From positions 3,286,001-3,350,000 of the forward strand of contig NZ_CP015772.1 of NCBI RefSeq assembly GCF_001654455.1: 64,000 bases of DNA. The letters run 5' to 3'. Both the position numbers and the translations under genes were made by a program. The stretch comes from Niabella ginsenosidivorans (GTDB taxonomy: Bacteria; Bacteroidota; Bacteroidia; Chitinophagales; Chitinophagaceae). This document shows, piece after piece, positions 4,518-30,772 of this stretch (position 1 is its first letter; each line of letters opens with the position of its first letter). Under the pieces are notes generated by a model. That model was given only the letters and a program-made list of their open reading frames with translations. It had not been told where the DNA came from and searched no databases.

Positions 4518-5915
4518 TCAATTTACCCCCTGGAACTGTTTTAATTTATTATACAGGGTTTTCCGGTCTATATTTAACATTTCGGCTGCCTTTTTCTTAT
4601 TAAAGTTTACTCTTTGCAGAACGTTCATAATAGCCTGGTATTCTGCCCTGCCGGCTACGTCTTTCAGCAGGTCCTGTGTAGGTGATACTGCGGACGCCAT
4701 AGGTGCCGGATCCTGCGTTAAAACATTATCAGGCACAGGAGTATGGGTAATGATTTCAGGTAGCAGCGTTTCTTCAGTAATGGTACCGCCAGGAGGGGTC
4801 AGCAGCACAGCCCTGCGAACGGCATTGCGCAACTCACGCAGGTTGCCCGGCCAGTCGTATCTCTGAAAGGCAGCAAATACATGTTCAGAAAAACCGTTTA
4901 TCTTTTTTTCACTTTCTTCACAGCATTTTTTCAGGAAAAATGTTGCCAGAGGCCGGATTTCATCAGGTCGGTCGCGTAAGGCTGGCAGGTGAATGGCAAA
5001 CTCATTAAGCCGGTGATAAAGGTCTTCCCTGAATTTTCCTTTCTGGCACGCAGCTTTAAGATTTTCATTGGATGCCACTATGATCCGTACATCTGAACCT
5101 ATTTCCCTGTTTCCTCCAACCCGCTTGAATTTCCGTTCCTGGATGATCCGGAGCAGGATGGCCTGGATATCTGACGACAGGTTTGCTATCTCGTCCAGGA
5201 AAAGTGTGCCGCCGTTTGCCATTTCAAAATGCCCTTCTTTATCCTGTAATGCTCCTGTAAAAGCACCTTTTACATGACCAAAGAGCTCACTGCCGGCCAG
5301 CTCCCTGGAAAGCGTGCCACAATCAATAGCCACAAAGGGCTGTTTTGAGCGTTTGCTGTTCTGGTGTATGGTACGTGCTATCACCTCTTTTCCCGTGCCA
5401 CTTTCTCCATATAAAACAACACTGTAATTGGTAGGTGCCACTACATTAACCTGTTGATAAAGATCTGCTGTTGCATCGGAGGTGCCGATATAATAATCCT
5501 GCTCAAACAGGATGGCTTCATTTTGAGGAAGAGCTGCCTGTTCTCCTGAATACTCCCGGTTCAGCATTTTTTTAAGAATCTCCAGTACTTCTTCAGGAAC
5601 CAGCGGCTTAGGTATATAATCAAAAGCGCCCAGGCGGGTTACTTCTATGGCAGGTCTTATATCAGAATAACCGGTAATGATCAAAATAGCCACCTTGCTG
5701 TTGATCTGTTTTAATTCTCTTATCAGTTGTATACCGTCCATATCTCCCAGCCTGTAATCTGCAATTACTGCATCAAAATCACCGGTTTTATATTTGGCAA
5801 TACCTTTATTACCGGAGAAAGCAGTTTCAGTAACATATCCTTTTTTAAAAAGATATCTCGAAAGAAGATGACATAAATCCACATCATCGTCTATAATGAG
5901 GAGCTTATTGGGCAT
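4518..5915 (-). CDS. Sigma-54-dependent response regulator (NtrC/AtoC type)
   Basis: 465 residues in three parts. A receiver (1-120) has the acidic pocket DDD at 9-11, phospho-acceptor Asp53 (IADYRLGDMDG) and Lys in PKPL. An AAA+ sigma-54 interaction domain (about 140-370) has Walker A GESGTGKE, the sigma-54 loop GAFTGA, Walker B FLDEIA and an arginine-rich region RYDWPGNLRELRN. A Fis-type helix-turn-helix ends the protein (AAEMLNIDRKTLYNKLKQF). It should activate sigma-54 promoters when phosphorylated. It is divergent from the lone receiver at 5982 with a 66-bp shared region, and the kinase at 6460-7854 is the obvious partner. Confidence 0.95.
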   Translation of the reverse strand: MPNKLLIIDDDVDLCHLLSRYLFKKGYVTETAFSGNKGIAKYKTGDFDAVIADYRLGDMDGIQLIRELKQINSKVAILIITGYSDIRPAIEVTRLGAFDYIPKPLVPEEVLEILKKMLNREYSGEQAALPQNEAILFEQDYYIGTSDATADLYQQVNVVAPTNYSVVLYGESGTGKEVIARTIHQNSKRSKQPFVAIDCGTLSRELAGSELFGHVKGAFTGALQDKEGHFEMANGGTLFLDEIANLSSDIQAILLRIIQERKFKRVGGNREIGSDVRIIVASNENLKAACQKGKFREDLYHRLNEFAIHLPALRDRPDEIRPLATFFLKKCCEESEKKINGFSEHVFAAFQRYDWPGNLRELRNAVRRAVLLTPPGGTITEETLLPEIITHTPVPDNVLTQDPAPMASAVSPTQDLLKDVAGRAEYQAIMNVLQRVNFNKKKAAEMLNIDRKTLYNKLKQFQGVN

Positions 5916-6459: not shown

Positions 6460-7854
6460 CTATACAAGATTCAGGGCTACTGTAAATGTAGTGCCCATTC
6501 CCTGCTGGCTGTCTACCTTTATCGTACCCTTATGATTCAGGATGATGTTTTGTGCATTGGTAAGGCCCAGCCCGTTCCCTTTTTTCTTTAATGTAAAATA
6601 TGGTTCAAAAAGATTTTGCAGTGTGTGCTCATCCATACCTTTACCATTATCACTGATTTCAATAACACATTTGTCTGCTTCCTTTCTGGTAGCAAGCGTC
6701 AGAACGCCTTCTGCACCGTTCATAGCTTCTATAGCATTTACAATAATGTTTAAAAAAGCAAGCCGGATCCGTTCTTTATCCACCATTACGTCGCAGAGAT
6801 CATTGGAATAATTTTTTACAACACGTATTTTTCTTAATAATACCCGGTCCTTAGCCATAAAAAGACTTTCATCCAGAATTTTGTTAATGTCTTCTTTCTG
6901 TTTGTCCAGTTGCATGAACTTGGTAGCGTTCAACAGATCGGAAACCATCTGGCTGATCCGCACAGAGTTCCTGCTAATGATCTTAATTAAAGACTGAGCA
7001 TCCTCATCTTTTTCAAGACAGGCCACGTCCCGAAGTTGCTCGGTTGCAAGGGATATATTGGTAAGCGGGTTCCTGACTTCATGCGCTACAACCCTTGCCA
7101 CTCGGCCAATGGTAGCTAACTTTTCAATCCCCTTCAATTCATTCAGCGCGGTATTTTTTTCGCTCAGTTCCTTAATATTACTTTCAAGCTCCTCCCGGTA
7201 CTGATTGGCAATATTGTTGGCCTTTTTTTTCTGTTTATACTGGCTGTTAAAGGTAATGACAGCATATATTATGGCTATTGCTGCCATGCACAGGGACAGT
7301 ATGGTCATAGCAGCTGTACTTGTATAAAAATTATTGAGTTTTGACATCCTTTTTTTCATAAGCTGCTCTTCCTGCACGGTCATCACCTGTATTTGCCGGT
7401 AAATACTATCGGTCTGCGCCAGTTTCGCGGGCCCTACTGCAGAATTCTCCAGCTTTACGGATGCCTTCTGATGCAGCCTGATAGCTGTTGAAAGCTCAGA
7501 AAGGCGCTGATCTGTCATTATCTTTAACCGGGATTCATTTGCCGATTGTACAGGGTCTGTTCTGGTGAGTTTTTTTATTTCAGCATGCAGCATTGCTATG
7601 GAATTGCGGGCATCATAAAAGCCGTTCAGGAATTGAGGCAGCCCATTAATAATATATCCCCGTACGTTGGATTCCGCCGTGCCTATCATCATTTTTACAT
7701 CCCCGATCTTGTTGATCAATGTATAATTATCCACGATCCAGTTCTTCTCCTGTTGCAGTCTCCGGTTGGTAGAAAGGATAAGGATATAGGAAACCAACAG
7801 CAACAATGATGATAGTGCATATCCAAGTCTGATCTTATTTAAAGACAATACCAT
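6460..7854 (-). CDS. CHASE3-type membrane sensor histidine kinase
   Basis: 464 residues. TM1 (about 8-27) and TM2 (about 179-202) flank a helical extracytoplasmic domain with NVRGYIINGLPQFL, the CHASE3 pattern. A coiled coil follows (residues 205-240), then HisKA with the phospho-acceptor His in VAHEVRNPLTN, and HATPase_c with the N box (NIIVNAIEAM), G1 box (DNGKGMD) and G2 box (GNGLGL). The signal is unknown. Gene order makes it the probable partner of one or both response regulators beside it. It is convergent with the lone receiver. Confidence 0.93.
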   Translation of the reverse strand: MVLSLNKIRLGYALSSLLLLVSYILILSTNRRLQQEKNWIVDNYTLINKIGDVKMMIGTAESNVRGYIINGLPQFLNGFYDARNSIAMLHAEIKKLTRTDPVQSANESRLKIMTDQRLSELSTAIRLHQKASVKLENSAVGPAKLAQTDSIYRQIQVMTVQEEQLMKKRMSKLNNFYTSTAAMTILSLCMAAIAIIYAVITFNSQYKQKKKANNIANQYREELESNIKELSEKNTALNELKGIEKLATIGRVARVVAHEVRNPLTNISLATEQLRDVACLEKDEDAQSLIKIISRNSVRISQMVSDLLNATKFMQLDKQKEDINKILDESLFMAKDRVLLRKIRVVKNYSNDLCDVMVDKERIRLAFLNIIVNAIEAMNGAEGVLTLATRKEADKCVIEISDNGKGMDEHTLQNLFEPYFTLKKKGNGLGLTNAQNIILNHKGTIKVDSQQGMGTTFTVALNLV

Positions 7855-19416: not shown

Positions 19417-19992
19417 ATGACACAAACAAAACCAGGAAGATCAATGACTTCAGAAAAAAATGCTACAGGCAGCAGTGCAAAAATAACTCCTGAAATGAAA
19501 AACAGTGAGTTTCACCGGTTTTTTGTAGACGAATTAAAAGACATTTACTGGGCGGAACAGCATTTGGCAAAAGCGCTGCCTAAAATGCAAAAAGCCAGCA
19601 GCAGCAAGGACCTCGCAGCTGCATTTGAAAAACATACAAAAGAAACAGAAATGCATGCCACTACACTTGAAAAAGTTTTTGAGCTTTTAGAGGAAAAAGC
19701 GGCTGCAAAAAAATGTGATGCCATGAAGGGATTGCTGGAAGAAGCAGATACTATTATATCCGATACAGAAAGCGAAAGTTTTACCCGTGACGCAGGGCTG
19801 ATACTGGCAGCACAAAAAGTAGAACATTATGAAATTGCCACATACGGTACTTTGTGCGCCTTTGCCCGGCAAATGGGTCATAGTGAAGCAGCCAAATTAC
19901 TACAACAGACGCTGGATAATGAAAAAAACACTGATGCCACACTGACAAAAATTGCAGAGAGCTTTGTAAATGAAGAGGCAGTGGCAGAATAA
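19417..19992 (+). CDS. DUF892 ferritin-like protein (YciE/YciF family)
   Basis: 191 residues. After a polar N-terminal tail of about 28 residues, the DUF892 four-helix domain starts at FHRFFVDELKDIYWAEQHL, with metal-ligand-type Glu and His residues (KHTKETEMHATTLEKVFELL and EHYEIATYGTLCAFARQMGH). YciF-like proteins are stress-induced and ferritin-like, with likely di-metal centres; their role is unclear. A terminator follows at 20021-20056. Confidence 0.92.
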   Translation: MTQTKPGRSMTSEKNATGSSAKITPEMKNSEFHRFFVDELKDIYWAEQHLAKALPKMQKASSSKDLAAAFEKHTKETEMHATTLEKVFELLEEKAAAKKCDAMKGLLEEADTIISDTESESFTRDAGLILAAQKVEHYEIATYGTLCAFARQMGHSEAAKLLQQTLDNEKNTDATLTKIAESFVNEEAVAE

Positions 19993-25852: not shown

Positions 25853-26712
25853 TTATCCGTTAATGATCTCGCCTCCATTAGGGTGCAATACCTGTCCGGT
25901 GATAAAGCTGGCATCATCACTGGCCAGGAATAAATAACATGGTGCAATTTCATTAGGCTCCCCGGCCCGACCCATTGGCACATCGCTGCCAAACGTGGCA
26001 ACCTTATCTTTGTCAAAAGACGAAACAATCAAAGGTGTCCATACCGGTCCCGGTGCTACTGCATTCACCCGGATGCCTTTCCTAACCAGGTTACCTGCAA
26101 GACTTCTTGTAAAACCAACAATAGCCCCTTTAGTGGATGCATAATCTATTAATGAAGAGCTGCCCCTATATGCGGTTACCGATGTGGTATTAATAATGCA
26201 GCTTCCTTTTTTCATATAGCCAACCGCATATTTTGATAACCAGAAACAGGAAAAGAAATTGGTGTAAAATGTTTTCAAAAGCTGTTCTGTACTGATTGCT
26301 TCAACAGACTCCTGCTCCCATTGCGTACCTGCGTTGTTAATTAATATATCCAGCCCCCCAAAGCCTTTATTGTTTCTTCAATGATCATGATACACTCTTC
26401 TTCTTTACTGATATCCCCTCTGATCAGGCTGCAGGAGCCTCCTTCGGCGTTAATAATACGCTGTGTGTCTGCCGCATCAGCATCTTCATTCAGATAAGCA
26501 ATGGCCAGGTGCGCCCCTTCCTTTGCCAACAATAAGGCAATTGCTTTTCCGATGCCGCTGTCTCCGCCTGTGATCAATGCCTTTTTACCTGCCAGCCGGC
26601 CTCCTTCATACTGCTTTGGCTGGCTTTGCGGCCGGGGATGCATCTCATTTTCAGTGCCGGGTTTTTCCTGTACCTGTCCGGGGCGTAATGGTTGCTTCTT
26701 TTCCTTTTCCAT
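25853..26712 (-). pseudogene. SDR-family oxidoreductase, one frameshift
   Basis: Two frames join to a full-length YhdF/YghA-like SDR of about 285 residues. Part one (26712 down to about 26359) has the polar tail typical of this subfamily (QKPGTENEMHPRPQ-like), then ALITGGDSGIGKAIALLLA. Frame is lost at a run of six G on the minus strand (26359-26354): one extra G would give GGLDILINNAG and continue into WEQESVEAI. Part two has SCIINTTSVTAYRG, the catalytic YASTKGAIVGFT, PGPVWTPLI and HPNGGEIING. These enzymes are often found in stress loci. One missing base is the only lesion, so this may be a sequencing error or phase-variable tract. Confidence 0.85.
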
Positions 26713-27605: not shown

Positions 27606-27692
27606 TCAGAAAAATAATCCCAATATTGTATAGTAGATCACTAAAAACATAAAAAAGCCGAGGACTGCTGCATTAACATGTTTATTTTCCAT
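27606..27692 (-). CDS. Possible 28-residue single-helix membrane peptide
   Basis: ATG at 27692-27690, TGA at 27608-27606. The product MENKHVNAAVLGFFMFLVIY followed by YTILGLFF is one hydrophobic helix with a short polar N-terminus. It lies 54 bp downstream of the riboswitch-controlled gene on the same strand, so it may belong to that transcript. Small membrane proteins of this sort are real in many bacteria, but length alone gives little proof. Confidence 0.35.
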   Translation of the reverse strand: MENKHVNAAVLGFFMFLVIYYTILGLFF

Positions 27693-27746: not shown

Positions 27747-28094
27747 CTATTTATTCACTACCCGCATTCTATTAATATCAAAGTCATCACAGGATAAAGA
27801 AACTGCAAAATGAAGCACATAAGCTGCAAAGTCTATGGGCTTCATCCTTTTTTTAAATTTCTTAACCGGCAACCGGCCTTTGCCGGCAGGCATTTTCCCG
27901 TTTTTTTCGTAAGCATATAAGGTAACGCTGAACCCTTCTTTACTAAATGAAATTTTTATGTTTACGGGGGCAAACCGCTCCGGATGGTAGTTCGGAAATT
28001 CAGCAGTCAGCAATTCTTCCACTCCTTCTCTCAGATCAAGGGCAGCATAGCCAACCAGGCTATGCGCTGCCATTTCAAAAGGCTGCTCTTTCAT
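27747..28094 (-). CDS. Unrecognised 115-residue protein downstream of a TPP riboswitch
   Basis: No family recognised. The protein is soluble with no signal or membrane span: N-terminal HSLVGYAALDLREGVEELL helix, then beta-like NIKISFSKEGFSVTLYAYEK, a basic loop (GKGRLPVKKFKKRMKP) and FAAYVLHFAVSLSCDDFDIN. The start codon is about 44 nt beyond a TPP aptamer and terminator on the same strand, so its expression should fall when thiamine pyrophosphate is plentiful. No thiamine biosynthesis, salvage or transport motif is visible. Confidence 0.7.
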   Translation of the reverse strand: MKEQPFEMAAHSLVGYAALDLREGVEELLTAEFPNYHPERFAPVNIKISFSKEGFSVTLYAYEKNGKMPAGKGRLPVKKFKKRMKPIDFAAYVLHFAVSLSCDDFDINRMRVVNK

Positions 28095-28137
28095 TCTGTA
28101 TAAATTTTACCGGCCTGTTAAAAACGGGGGCTATTAC

Positions 28138-28165
28138 AAAAGGCCCCCGGTGCTACCGGGGGGCC
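28138..28165 (-). terminator. Riboswitch expression-platform terminator
   Basis: On the minus strand, a very strong GC hairpin (GGCCCCCCGG / CCGGGGGCC, loop UAGCA or similar, one bulged base) is followed by UUUU. It starts 12 nt after the end of the TPP aptamer, the usual place for a riboswitch-controlled intrinsic terminator. Confidence 0.85.
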
Positions 28166-28177
28166 CAGATTTTCTCA

Positions 28178-28261
28178 TCTTCCTGCGCTGGCATTATCCA
28201 GTTCAGGTTCTACGGGTTTTTCTCAGTGCGTATCTTTCGATAGTTTCACCACCCCGGAAGA
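28178..28261 (-). promoter_or_regulatory. TPP riboswitch (THI element)
   Basis: Read on the minus strand from 28261, all main parts of the thi-box are present. P1 arms are UCUUCC and GGAAGA. The left conserved block is GGGGUG then CUGAGA, and ACCC follows. The strongly conserved right block reads GAACCUGAACUGGAUAAUGC then CAGCGCAGG. An optional P3a-like hairpin UAUC-GAAA-GAUA sits between the left blocks. The aptamer binds thiamine pyrophosphate; the following terminator hairpin makes it a transcription-off switch. Confidence 0.93.
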
Positions 28262-28359
28262 AAATCTATCAATATCATTTAAATAATTATGCCAAAAACC
28301 GGGCAGCCATTTATTTTAAGTTTTTAGTACTTTTTTATCTACACAGTGTGTATTGTTTT

Positions 28360-28830
28360 CTACAGTTTATTATCCTCAAAAGGCGAAAGATACCGGGGTT
28401 TCGGTCTTTTATAAAAAAAGCCCCAACAGGCAGCTGCAATAATAAAAGCAGCCGTAAGCCCTATCCTTATACCCCGGTTAAGCTTCTTATTCTTTTGGGG
28501 CGGGCGTTTGTTTATAGCGGGAATTTCCTTTACAAATTGCGCTATATACCCGTCTGAATATATGCCGTAAGCATCCAGCAATATCCCCCGTGCTCCATCC
28601 GGGGTCTGTAAAAGATACAACACAGAGTTGTCTGCCGGATCACTTCCCCCTTCAAACCGGTAAAAATTCTTTATGATAACTTCCCCGGGTGCGTACGCCT
28701 TTGGCGCTCCGTTATAAGAAAGGCCACTGCCGGTTATAAAAAAAGATCTGGTATAGCCTTCCTTTGCTGCATGCTTTATGCATTCACTGATCGTGCTCAT
28801 TTTTTGCGAAGAAGTCTCTTTTTTCATCAT
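28360..28830 (-). CDS. Tail-anchored protein of unknown function
   Basis: 156 residues. The N-terminal part (about 1-105) is soluble: a short helix with ISECIKHAAKEGYTRSFFIT, then a beta-rich region (APGEVIIKNFYRFEG, SVLYLLQTPDGARGILLDAY) often seen in uncharacterised Bacteroidota proteins. One membrane helix lies near the C-terminus (about 117-137), with a basic segment before it, so the domain faces the cytoplasm. No function known. It is on the same strand as, and 39 bp after, the DUF72 gene. Confidence 0.75.
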   Translation of the reverse strand: MMKKETSSQKMSTISECIKHAAKEGYTRSFFITGSGLSYNGAPKAYAPGEVIIKNFYRFEGGSDPADNSVLYLLQTPDGARGILLDAYGIYSDGYIAQFVKEIPAINKRPPQKNKKLNRGIRIGLTAAFIIAAACWGFFYKRPKPRYLSPFEDNKL

Positions 28831-29598: not shown

Positions 29599-30089
29599 TA
29601 TTCTATTTTAAGTATAAAACTGATCCGTCCGTTTGTTTCAATATAGACCCTCTGAACCCGGCTCAGATCTTCGCTTTTGGTTTCCAGCCGCAGGCTTTCC
29701 AAAAGATCTGTGCGGCTTAGTGCCGCCCGCCTCATATTATTCCAGAGAACAGTACCGTTATCATACAGCAGCAGCGGCTTGCCTGCAACCAGCTGACCAA
29801 ATTTTCCGCTGGCCTGCGCCCACCAGGCTACAATGCGGTTAACCAGGATCATAACTGCAGAAGCCGCCACCGTAGCCCAGTAGGGAGAGGCGCCTACAAT
29901 GCCCCGGGCCAGCACAGACCCCATTGCAATGATAATAATCGTATCAAATGCAGAGCGTTTATTAATGATGCGTATACCACCCAGGCGGATCAGCAGCAGG
30001 CAGATCAAAAATGTAACAAATGCGCGGGCCGACATTTGCCCTATGCCCAGCTCTTCGCCTTTACCAAATACCCAGTAAATAGTATTCAT
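29598..30089 (-). CDS. DUF421 (YetF-like) membrane protein
   Basis: 163 residues. Three hydrophobic segments (about 20-37, 45-70, 70-88) precede the soluble DUF421 domain with GKPLLLYDNGTVLWNNMRRA and SRTDLLESLRLE. YetF homologues in Bacillus are about 230 residues; this one lacks the C-terminal extension, as many Bacteroidota members do. Function is unknown. It overlaps the pyrophosphatase gene by 4 bp (ATGA) and touches the DUF72 gene. Confidence 0.88.
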   Translation of the reverse strand: MNTIYWVFGKGEELGIGQMSARAFVTFLICLLLIRLGGIRIINKRSAFDTIIIIAMGSVLARGIVGASPYWATVAASAVMILVNRIVAWWAQASGKFGQLVAGKPLLLYDNGTVLWNNMRRAALSRTDLLESLRLETKSEDLSRVQRVYIETNGRISFILKIE

Positions 30090-30574
30090 CCTTCATTCTT
30101 TTTAATTTGCTTTGTTGCTTCTTTGGCATTTATAAATCCCTGCGGCCGGAAGTCCTTCCCTTCTTCCCTGTTGTAATTGATAAAAAAATCCTCAAGCTCC
30201 CGCAGCAGCTTTTCCGGCAGCTCACCGGTACACCCTGTATTCCATTCATAGCCCGTAACAACAGGAGTAAATAAATACCGGTCATTACGTATCTTTTCTC
30301 CATCCTTTTCTATCTGCACTGCCTTTATAGCGCCCAGTAAGCGGCATTCGATCATACAGCCGGGAAATGTTTTGAGTGATGACAATACAAAAGCGTCCAA
30401 CGGATCTCCATCTTCGCCTTTAGTACCAGGTATAAAACCAAAGTCAAAAGGGAACACCATCCCTTCCGGCAGCAGTTTCTTCAAACAAAGCATACCATAT
30501 CTGGAATCATAATCATATTTTTCCCTGCTGCCTCTGGGCGTTTCTATAATGATAAATGTTTTGTACTTGCTCAT
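30086..30574 (-). CDS. Inorganic pyrophosphatase, family I
   Basis: 162 residues. It contains the catalytic signature GEDGDPLDAFVL (metal-binding aspartates) and the expected beta-barrel strands around FDFGFIPGTKG; the Lys/Arg residues near the start (RGSREKYDYD) match substrate-binding positions. The sequence is divergent from housekeeping Ppa and may be an accessory copy. It is the first gene of the operon with DUF421 and DUF72, joined by a 4-bp overlap. Confidence 0.85.
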   Translation of the reverse strand: MSKYKTFIIIETPRGSREKYDYDSRYGMLCLKKLLPEGMVFPFDFGFIPGTKGEDGDPLDAFVLSSLKTFPGCMIECRLLGAIKAVQIEKDGEKIRNDRYLFTPVVTGYEWNTGCTGELPEKLLRELEDFFINYNREEGKDFRPQGFINAKEATKQIKKNEG

Positions 30575-30772
30575 AGCCGGAATTTATTATTGCTGCATCA
30601 CTATTGTCCAATCTTTTATTTCACTAAAAAATTGATGCCAAACTACAGCTTATGGTACAGGAAGTATTTTGTTTTTAAGTTTCCTATCTGGAATAACAAG
30701 CGGATCATCAACAGTCAACCAGGATTAAGAAGAGGACAGATATTTGCGGCAAATTTTATTTTTGGTAACTAC

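What the first reader, a model, noticed from the sequence alone, without database searches (positions are those of the whole stretch)
27747..28261. TPP riboswitch controlling a gene with no recognisable thiamine function
A complete TPP aptamer (28261-28178, minus strand) and a strong terminator hairpin (28165-28138) sit directly upstream of a 115-residue protein I cannot place in any family, followed by a possible 28-residue membrane peptide. TPP riboswitches nearly always control thiamine synthesis, salvage or uptake. Either the downstream protein is an undescribed thiamine-related factor, the peptide is, or the real target was lost and the switch is an orphan. The gene being intact argues for the first.
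Basis: partly seen in the sequence, partly recalled or inferred. Interest (0 to 1): 0.75.

Follow-up and report, generated by a model that had tools for sequence, protein, structure and literature searches.

The report
TPP riboswitch in a stress-gene context
A vitamin-B1-sensing RNA in this bacterium belongs to a group that sits beside stress-type genes instead of vitamin B1 genes, usually with its own kind of start signal and its own stop signal, and may have been recruited to a new job.

Summary
The TPP aptamer is real (RF00059, 61.7 bits, cut-off 54.3), followed by an intrinsic terminator and an intact 115-aa gene. The gene is an orphan seen only in Niabella (7 of 17 genus genomes, own included). 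It follows a TPP element in 3 of the 7; in the other 4 the element lies 20-36 kb away, before a DUF6766 gene in 3.

The RNA, not the gene, is the constant part. I found 51 TPP elements without a thiamine gene, in 22 genera of the family. A sigma54-like GGCAC/T site lies upstream in 44 of 51, against 3 of 107 thiamine-linked switches; a terminator-like hairpin follows in 47 of 51, against 18 of 61. Neighbours include universal stress protein, pyrophosphatase, DUF892 and histidine kinases. In 15 of 51 the next gene points the other way, so the terminated RNA itself may act.

In this locus the gene starts about 44 nt past the terminator; TPP-dependent attenuation is the likeliest mechanism, a stand-alone TPP RNA the main rival. 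TPP binding, transcription and sigma54 use are untested.

The parts
28280..28295 (-). sigma54-like -24/-12 site TTGGCATAATTATTTA
   Evidence: Highest score in the window, both strands, with a matrix from 26 elements of other genera: 15.9 bits; the next is 15.3, and 26 places exceed 10 bits. Aligned in 7 of 7 genus loci
28163..28266 (-). TPP aptamer (RF00059)
   Evidence: cmscan 61.7 bits, cut-off 54.3
28258..28267 (-). 5' strand of extended P1 helix, at the inferred transcription start (about 28268)
   Evidence: fold; own P1 strands fit better than swapped ones in 24 class members
28167..28176 (-). 3' strand of extended P1 helix
   Evidence: fold; swap test
28138..28166 (-). intrinsic terminator hairpin and U-tract
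   Evidence: fold; hairpin formed in the predicted folds of 7 of 7 genus loci
27747..28094 (-). 115-aa orphan gene, about 44 nt after the terminator
   Evidence: 5 intact homologues plus one broken, Niabella only
27606..27692 (-). 28-aa putative membrane peptide
   Evidence: similar 29-aa ORF in G008 only
28360..28830 (-). 156-aa gene upstream; a relative also stands upstream of the element in G015, G005, G006 and G011
   Evidence: by eye; tblastn finds one in 5 of 6 other genus regions; no Pfam match
30626..30641 (-). second sigma54-like site, 52 nt before the pyrophosphatase gene (30086-30574)
   Evidence: 14.0 bits; enrichment of such sites before the window's genes is weak
4518..5915 (-). 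NtrC-type response regulator with sigma54 activation domain, a candidate activator only
   Evidence: PF00158 4.9e-66; relatives are not enriched near the elements of other genera (1 of 16 against 2 of 22)
6460..7854 (-). CHASE3 histidine kinase; a relative follows the element in G176
19417..19992 (+). DUF892 (YciF-like) gene of the island
   Evidence: PF05974; relatives near 9 of 16 non-thi elements of other genera, 0 of 22 thi-linked ones

Best explanation
The element belongs to a class of TPP riboswitch in Chitinophagaceae that is not linked to thiamine genes. A sigma54-type promoter starts transcription at the 5' strand of an extended P1 helix, so that the RNA is little more than the TPP aptamer plus a terminator. 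In this locus it works as an OFF attenuator. With TPP bound, P1 and P2 form, the terminator's 5' arm is free and transcription stops. Without TPP, that arm (CCCCGG) pairs with the CCGGGG of P1/P2, the polymerase reads on, and the 115-aa gene (and perhaps the peptide) is made. Shown: aptamer, conserved site, extended P1, terminator hairpin, stress-gene setting, predicted alternative pairing in this genome. Inferred: use of sigma54 and of an NtrC-type activator, TPP binding, the switching itself, and a stress role for the gene.
For: RF00059 match. Site in 44 of 51 non-thi elements against 3 of 107 thi-linked ones; the window site scores highest in the window with a matrix from other genera. rpoN is in the genome and an NtrC-type regulator in the window. 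P1-extension strands and terminator arms fit their own partners better than swapped ones (0 of 20,000 permutations each, 24 elements). Island homologues near elements of other genera: DUF892 9 of 16 against 0 of 22, DUF4142 6 of 16 against 0 of 22. For cis control here: the gene starts about 44 nt after the terminator, leaving little room for a promoter of its own; element, gene and a membrane-like peptide stay together in G000 and G008 although the genes on either side differ; the RNA cut before the terminator's 3' arm is predicted to form the antiterminator in G000, and aptamer-arm pairing beats shuffles there (z -2.7). Strong terminators also follow some thi-linked TPP elements of the family (6 of 61 at -15 kcal/mol or below), so attenuation is not foreign to it.
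Against: Across the class there is no sign of a shared antiterminator: own against swapped pairing -9.5 against -9.5, p 0.52; P1 3' strand against arm p 0.22. Among the 7 genus loci the CCGGGG antiterminator is the predicted nascent fold only in G000 and G015; in G011, G006 and G010 the arm pairs with other aptamer parts, and G008 and G005 keep the aptamer. In 15 of 51 elements the next gene is convergent (by eye). The site lacks the GC of the usual sigma54 -12 element (consensus recalled). NtrC-type regulators are not enriched near elements of other genera (1 of 16 against 2 of 22). Enrichment of such sites before the window's other genes is weak (19 of 200 permuted matrices do as well). Covariation inside the genus alone is modest: 4 of 41 pairs with a change on both sides. 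A terminator-like hairpin is not unique to the class (18 of 61 thi-linked).
Confidence: 0.47

Rival explanations
1. The short RNA itself is the product: a sigma54-dependent, constitutively terminated, stand-alone TPP-aptamer RNA that acts in trans, buffers TPP, or acts on convergent genes by read-through antisense; downstream genes are incidental.
For: Convergent next gene in 15 of 51 elements, e.g. both in G034; no class-wide antiterminator, while flavobacterial TonB-linked TPP switches show one between P1 3' strand and terminator arm (11 of 14 with z below -1.5, against 5 of 24); neighbour genes vary from genus to genus; more than one copy in G265, G053, G034, G315, G182 and G109; the inferred transcript is aptamer plus terminator only.
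Against: 30 of 51 elements have a co-directional next gene, many within about 150 nt (by eye); I saw no conserved unpaired seed, but did not search for targets; in G000 a plausible antiterminator exists and the gene has little room for another promoter. Whole-aptamer pairing with the arm does not separate class from controls (3 of 24 against 2 of 15).
Confidence: 0.32
2. The 115-aa protein (or the peptide) is an undescribed thiamine-related factor under an ordinary TPP switch.
For: TPP element, gene and peptide are linked in G000 and G008; the gene is conserved.
Against: 4 of 7 homologues are not behind a TPP element; the same element precedes DUF6766-type genes in G005, G006 and G010; no thi-type gene within 1.5 kb downstream; the upstream site is absent from the two other TPP elements of this genome.
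Confidence: 0.08
3. The switch is an orphan or decaying relic with no present function.
For: Some members look decayed: G015 (gene frame broken, CUGAGA changed to CCGAGA), G384, one G109 copy, the G034 pair; three members of other genera score below the Rfam cut-off at 39-50 bits.
Against: Site, P1 extension, aptamer and terminator are kept together across genera, with pairing partners that change together.
Confidence: 0.07
4. The aptamer core has shifted to a related ligand of stressed cells (e.g. an adenylated or triphosphate form of thiamine) while keeping the fold.
For: Non-thiamine setting; some members have changed core positions.
Against: Core segments are unchanged in the window and in most aligned members; the AA for AU change in the P4 loop of the Niabella elements is common in other TPP elements of the family, so it is no evidence.
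Confidence: 0.06

Closest known systems
TPP riboswitch (RF00059, THI element)
   Same: Aptamer fold and conserved core; passes the Rfam cut-off
   Different: No thiamine gene downstream; sigma54-like site; extended P1; terminator directly after the aptamer; stress-gene setting
[quoted passage not shown]
   Same: Same phylum; the two other TPP elements of this genome precede a TonB-dependent receptor and an NMN-transporter family protein
   Different: The third element here has no thiamine target
Clostridium acetobutylicum SAM-I riboswitch controlling an antisense RNA (as described in PMC2258182, passages)
   Same: Terminator-bearing riboswitch that faces a convergent gene, as in 15 of 51 elements
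   Different: Other ligand; a typical antiterminator is described there, none is shared by the class here; in the window the gene is co-directional
Orphan aptamers noted by Barrick and Breaker (PMC2258182, passages)
   Same: High-scoring aptamers away from genes of the cognate metabolite; action through trans-acting antisense RNAs or orphaning was suggested there
   Different: That was 'a handful' of hits; here a conserved class with its own promoter-like site and terminator
Flavobacterium psychrophilum sigma54 regulon (PMC9723704, passages)
   Same: Bacteroidetes sigma54 promoters reported before protein quality-control and envelope-stress genes
   Different: The passages read mention no TPP element under sigma54

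Membership tests
TPP riboswitch aptamer (RF00059) | Covariance model match above the curated cut-off | tested here: met
   61.7 bits, cut-off 54.3. Of 9 class members of other genera put to Rfam, 5 pass and 4 do not (53.5, 50.4, 43.0, 39.3 bits)
TPP riboswitch aptamer (RF00059) | Conserved ligand-pocket segments (CUGAGA, CCUGA, GCG) | tested here: met
   alignment; residue roles recalled from the crystal structures
TPP riboswitch aptamer (RF00059) | Binds TPP | not testable with these tools
   needs in-line probing or calorimetry
Thiamine-gene TPP riboswitch (THI box in the usual sense) | Thiamine synthesis, salvage or uptake gene downstream | tested here: not met
   115-aa gene without family; no thi-type reference within 1.5 kb downstream
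Transcription-attenuating riboswitch | Intrinsic terminator after the aptamer | tested here: met
   47 of 51 class members
Transcription-attenuating riboswitch | Antiterminator that excludes the terminator and the aptamer | tested here: inconclusive
   predicted in G000 and G015, not shared by the class
Sigma54-dependent transcription unit | -24/-12 promoter (TGGCAC-N5-TTGC; consensus recalled) | tested here: inconclusive
   GGCAC/T and TT at the right spacing, GC of the -12 part not conserved
Sigma54-dependent transcription unit | rpoN and an enhancer-binding activator in the genome | tested here: met
   PF04552, PF00158
Stand-alone small RNA | Discrete terminated transcript independent of a downstream gene | tested here: inconclusive
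   15 of 51 elements face a convergent gene (by eye); no expression data

The most novel reading that the evidence does not exclude
Chitinophagaceae have a family of sigma54-dependent, stand-alone TPP-binding RNAs, sometimes several per genome, that link the TPP level to a general stress response in trans or by antisense: a metabolite-sensing small RNA class derived from the TPP riboswitch and free of thiamine genes.
Probability: 0.3. Interest if true: 0.88.

Novelty: new variant of a known kind. Interest (0 to 1): 0.72.

Why it matters
TPP riboswitches are the textbook case of a vitamin controlling its own genes. A conserved class that has left the thiamine genes, carries a sigma54-type start, sits among stress-type genes and often faces no co-directional gene would show how a riboswitch can be recruited as a general metabolic sensor or become a small RNA gene. 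It gives many natural copies to test the 2007 suggestion that orphan aptamers may act in trans.

Tried and rejected
Rejected: a ligand shift argued from the P4-loop AA, because AA is common in other TPP elements of the family. Rejected: homologues of the 115-aa protein behind thi genes; none seen among 7. A single-sequence scan of genome contigs for the protein found nothing; the alignment scan found three Niabella records. Structure prediction of the 115-aa protein was weak (mean pLDDT 60.7) and no solved structure matched (best E 0.27). The first terminator detector was too strict and missed plain terminators; its terminator column was not used. The detector failed on 6 of 31 elements, partly through misplaced anchors; G053 was dropped too because its hairpin was doubtful, leaving 24. 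A wider detector finds hairpins in 47 of 51 class members, and also in 18 of 61 thi-linked ones, so a hairpin alone does not define the class. The site before other window genes is only weakly enriched, and NtrC-type regulators are not enriched near the elements. None of the 29 best loci outside the family had the site, so the class was not seen beyond the family in that sample of 296 phylum genomes.

Literature: seven searches. Among the rows listed (at most 15 per search, of up to 7,772 papers) I saw no paper on TPP switches under sigma54 or before stress genes; only open-licence papers are held. I read passages of PMC2258182, PMC9723704 and PMC7366714 and no whole paper.

Full report
OBSERVATION. 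The window lies in a 5.63 Mb single-contig genome. Contig lengths of three genus relatives (G011, G005, G010) equal those of Niabella records found (N. aurantiaca DSM 17617, a Niabella MAG, N. pedocola JCM 31011), so the genus is Niabella (family Chitinophagaceae, recalled). cmscan confirms RF00059 at 28163-28266 (-), 61.7 bits against a cut-off of 54.3. Aptamer and terminator fold together at -49.7 kcal/mol, z -3.9. The genome has three TPP matches: one precedes a TonB-dependent receptor, one (37.3 bits, below cut-off) an NMN-transporter family protein, and the third is this one.

THE 115-AA GENE. It has no Pfam or NCBIfam match and is found in 7 of 99 genomes searched, own included, all in the genus (7 of 17 there). 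One of the 7, in G015, has a broken frame. Behind a TPP element it stands in G000, G008 and G015 only. In G005, G006, G010 and G011 it has no TPP element before it; by eye a 156-aa-type gene lies upstream in G006, G010 and G011, and SDR and DUF4142-type genes follow. These four genomes keep a TPP element 20-36 kb away. The same type of 156-aa gene lies upstream of it in G005, G006 and G011 by eye. The next gene is DUF6766 in G006 (Pfam 1.3e-89) and by resemblance in G005 and G010; in G011 a similar start is followed by what looks like a broken frame. The target gene thus changes while the element stays.

THE ELEMENT. The seven genus loci align from a TTGGCA block about 40 nt upstream, through the aptamer, to the terminator. 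A loose pattern search of 394 family genomes (67 with a match) brought TPP elements with a terminator in other genera, standing before stress-type genes. A covariance model from nine of these, none from Niabella, was run on 294 family genomes. The held-out window element ranks 18th by E-value (73.5 bits); the 17 places above it, six of them training sequences, are all without a thi gene. In 296 genomes of the phylum, mostly outside the family, the 29 best non-family loci look TonB- or thi-linked by eye and none has the site. Not every member passes Rfam: of nine from other genera tested, five pass and four fall short, at 53.5, 50.4, 43.0 and 39.3 bits.

THE SITE. I collected 158 distinct TPP places of the family and order for which DNA was in hand. 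They are not a random sample: they come from hits, partly chosen for aptamer similarity; the site was never part of a query. 107 have a thi-type gene within 1.5 kb downstream (tblastn against 15 references of six types). Representatives of the six types were put to Pfam: TonB receptor, NMN transporter, ThiC, hydroxyethylthiazole kinase and ThiS families, and a methyltransferase that I count as thi because thi-like genes follow it, judged by eye. Of these 107, 3 have the site. Of the 51 others, 44 have it. A matrix from 26 non-Niabella sites scores the window site highest in the window, 15.9 bits, closely followed by another intergenic place (15.3) and places inside genes (15.2, 14.5). Informative columns are GGCAC/T and a TT ten bases on, the spacing of sigma54 promoters (recalled), but the GC of the -12 part is not conserved. 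The genome has rpoN and the window an NtrC-type regulator with a CHASE3 kinase. With GG at 28292-28293, transcription would start near 28268, at the extended P1 helix.

RNA STRUCTURE. In 24 of 31 elements tried, the P1-extension strands pair better with their own partner than with swapped ones (-10.1 against -6.4 kcal/mol, 0 of 20,000 permutations), and so do the terminator arms. Aptamer against terminator arm does not (-9.5 against -9.5, p 0.52), nor does the P1 3' strand against the arm (p 0.22). As a comparison, of 15 flavobacterial TonB-linked switches 14 could be scored for pairing of the P1 3' strand with the arm, 11 with z below -1.5; in the class 5 of 24. For whole aptamer against arm the figures are 2 of 15 and 3 of 24, no difference. 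So the class shows no common antiterminator. In the window's own RNA the pairing is strong (z -2.7), and the RNA cut before the terminator's 3' arm is predicted to form it. G015 does so as well; in G011 the arm pairs with P5, in G006 and G010 with the 3' side of P4, and G008 and G005 keep the aptamer. Within the genus, 4 of 41 pairs show a change on both sides. A hairpin of -8 kcal/mol or better with a U-run follows 47 of 51 class members and 18 of the 61 thi-linked places tested (of 107); 6 of those 61 reach -15.

NEIGHBOURS. By eye, over, the next gene is co-directional in 30 of 51 (7 of them Niabella, two of those with broken frames), convergent in 15, and unclear or far in 6. Families found for the genes I searched: co-directional DUF6766, Usp, pyrophosphatase, MFS, GNAT, DinB, trypsin-like, CheB/CheR, DUF892 and histidine kinases; convergent GH97, ferredoxin reductase-like, Usp, GT9, DUF2383, a PF00144 hydrolase, DUF326 and an FAD-binding protein; three more (erythromycin-esterase-, TetR- and methyltransferase-like) only below the curated cut-offs; three without a match; one not searched. 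Homologues of the window's island genes lie near 10 of 16 non-thi regions of other genera and near 4 of 22 thi-linked ones; DUF892 9 against 0, DUF4142 6 against 0, DUF2383 6 against 1, but NtrC-type regulator 1 against 2. 'Stress' rests on what these families are known for (recalled), not on expression data.

MECHANISM. Two readings remain. (i) A sigma54-type transcript is attenuated by TPP, and in this locus the 115-aa gene, starting about 44 nt past the terminator, is made only on read-through; I hold this most likely here. (ii) The terminated RNA itself is the product; I hold this most likely for members facing convergent genes. Both may be true in different members.

NOVELTY. The aptamer is known. 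The class, its site and its setting were in none of the rows listed by seven searches. Barrick and Breaker had noted a handful of aptamers away from related genes and suggested trans-acting antisense RNAs or orphaning (PMC2258182, passages). I file it as a new variant of a known kind.

Noticed in passing
window 3272-30574: The left half of the window is rich in DUF4142 (two), DUF2383 (two), DUF892, topoisomerase IB, a low-complexity KGG-like protein, SDR, DUF72, DUF421, pyrophosphatase, and a CHASE3 kinase with an NtrC-type regulator.
   Followed up: partly
window 25853-26712: The short-chain dehydrogenase appears as two ORFs (26341-26712 and 25853-26278), while relatives have one ORF of about 286 aa, so the gene looks broken here.
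   Followed up: no
L048 (G015): The 115-aa homologue has a broken frame and the aptamer has CCGAGA in place of CUGAGA; the locus may be decaying, or the frame may be an assembly error.
   Followed up: partly
L182-L210 (loci outside the family): Many TonB-linked TPP switches of other Bacteroidetes families share a GCCGTT...AACGGC terminator complementary to the P1 3' strand (AAACGG), which looks like a simple transcription attenuator.
   Followed up: partly
L132 and L134 (G034): Two similar class members in one genome, both facing convergent genes and both with changed aptamer core positions.
   Followed up: partly
L161 and L119 (G158, G103): Proteins alike by eye (trypsin-like in G158) are encoded just downstream of the element in two different genera, a possible recurring partner.
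   Followed up: no
L064, L067, L125, L127, L140, L225: Strong terminator hairpins (-15 to -21 kcal/mol) follow six thi-linked TPP elements of the family.
   Followed up: no
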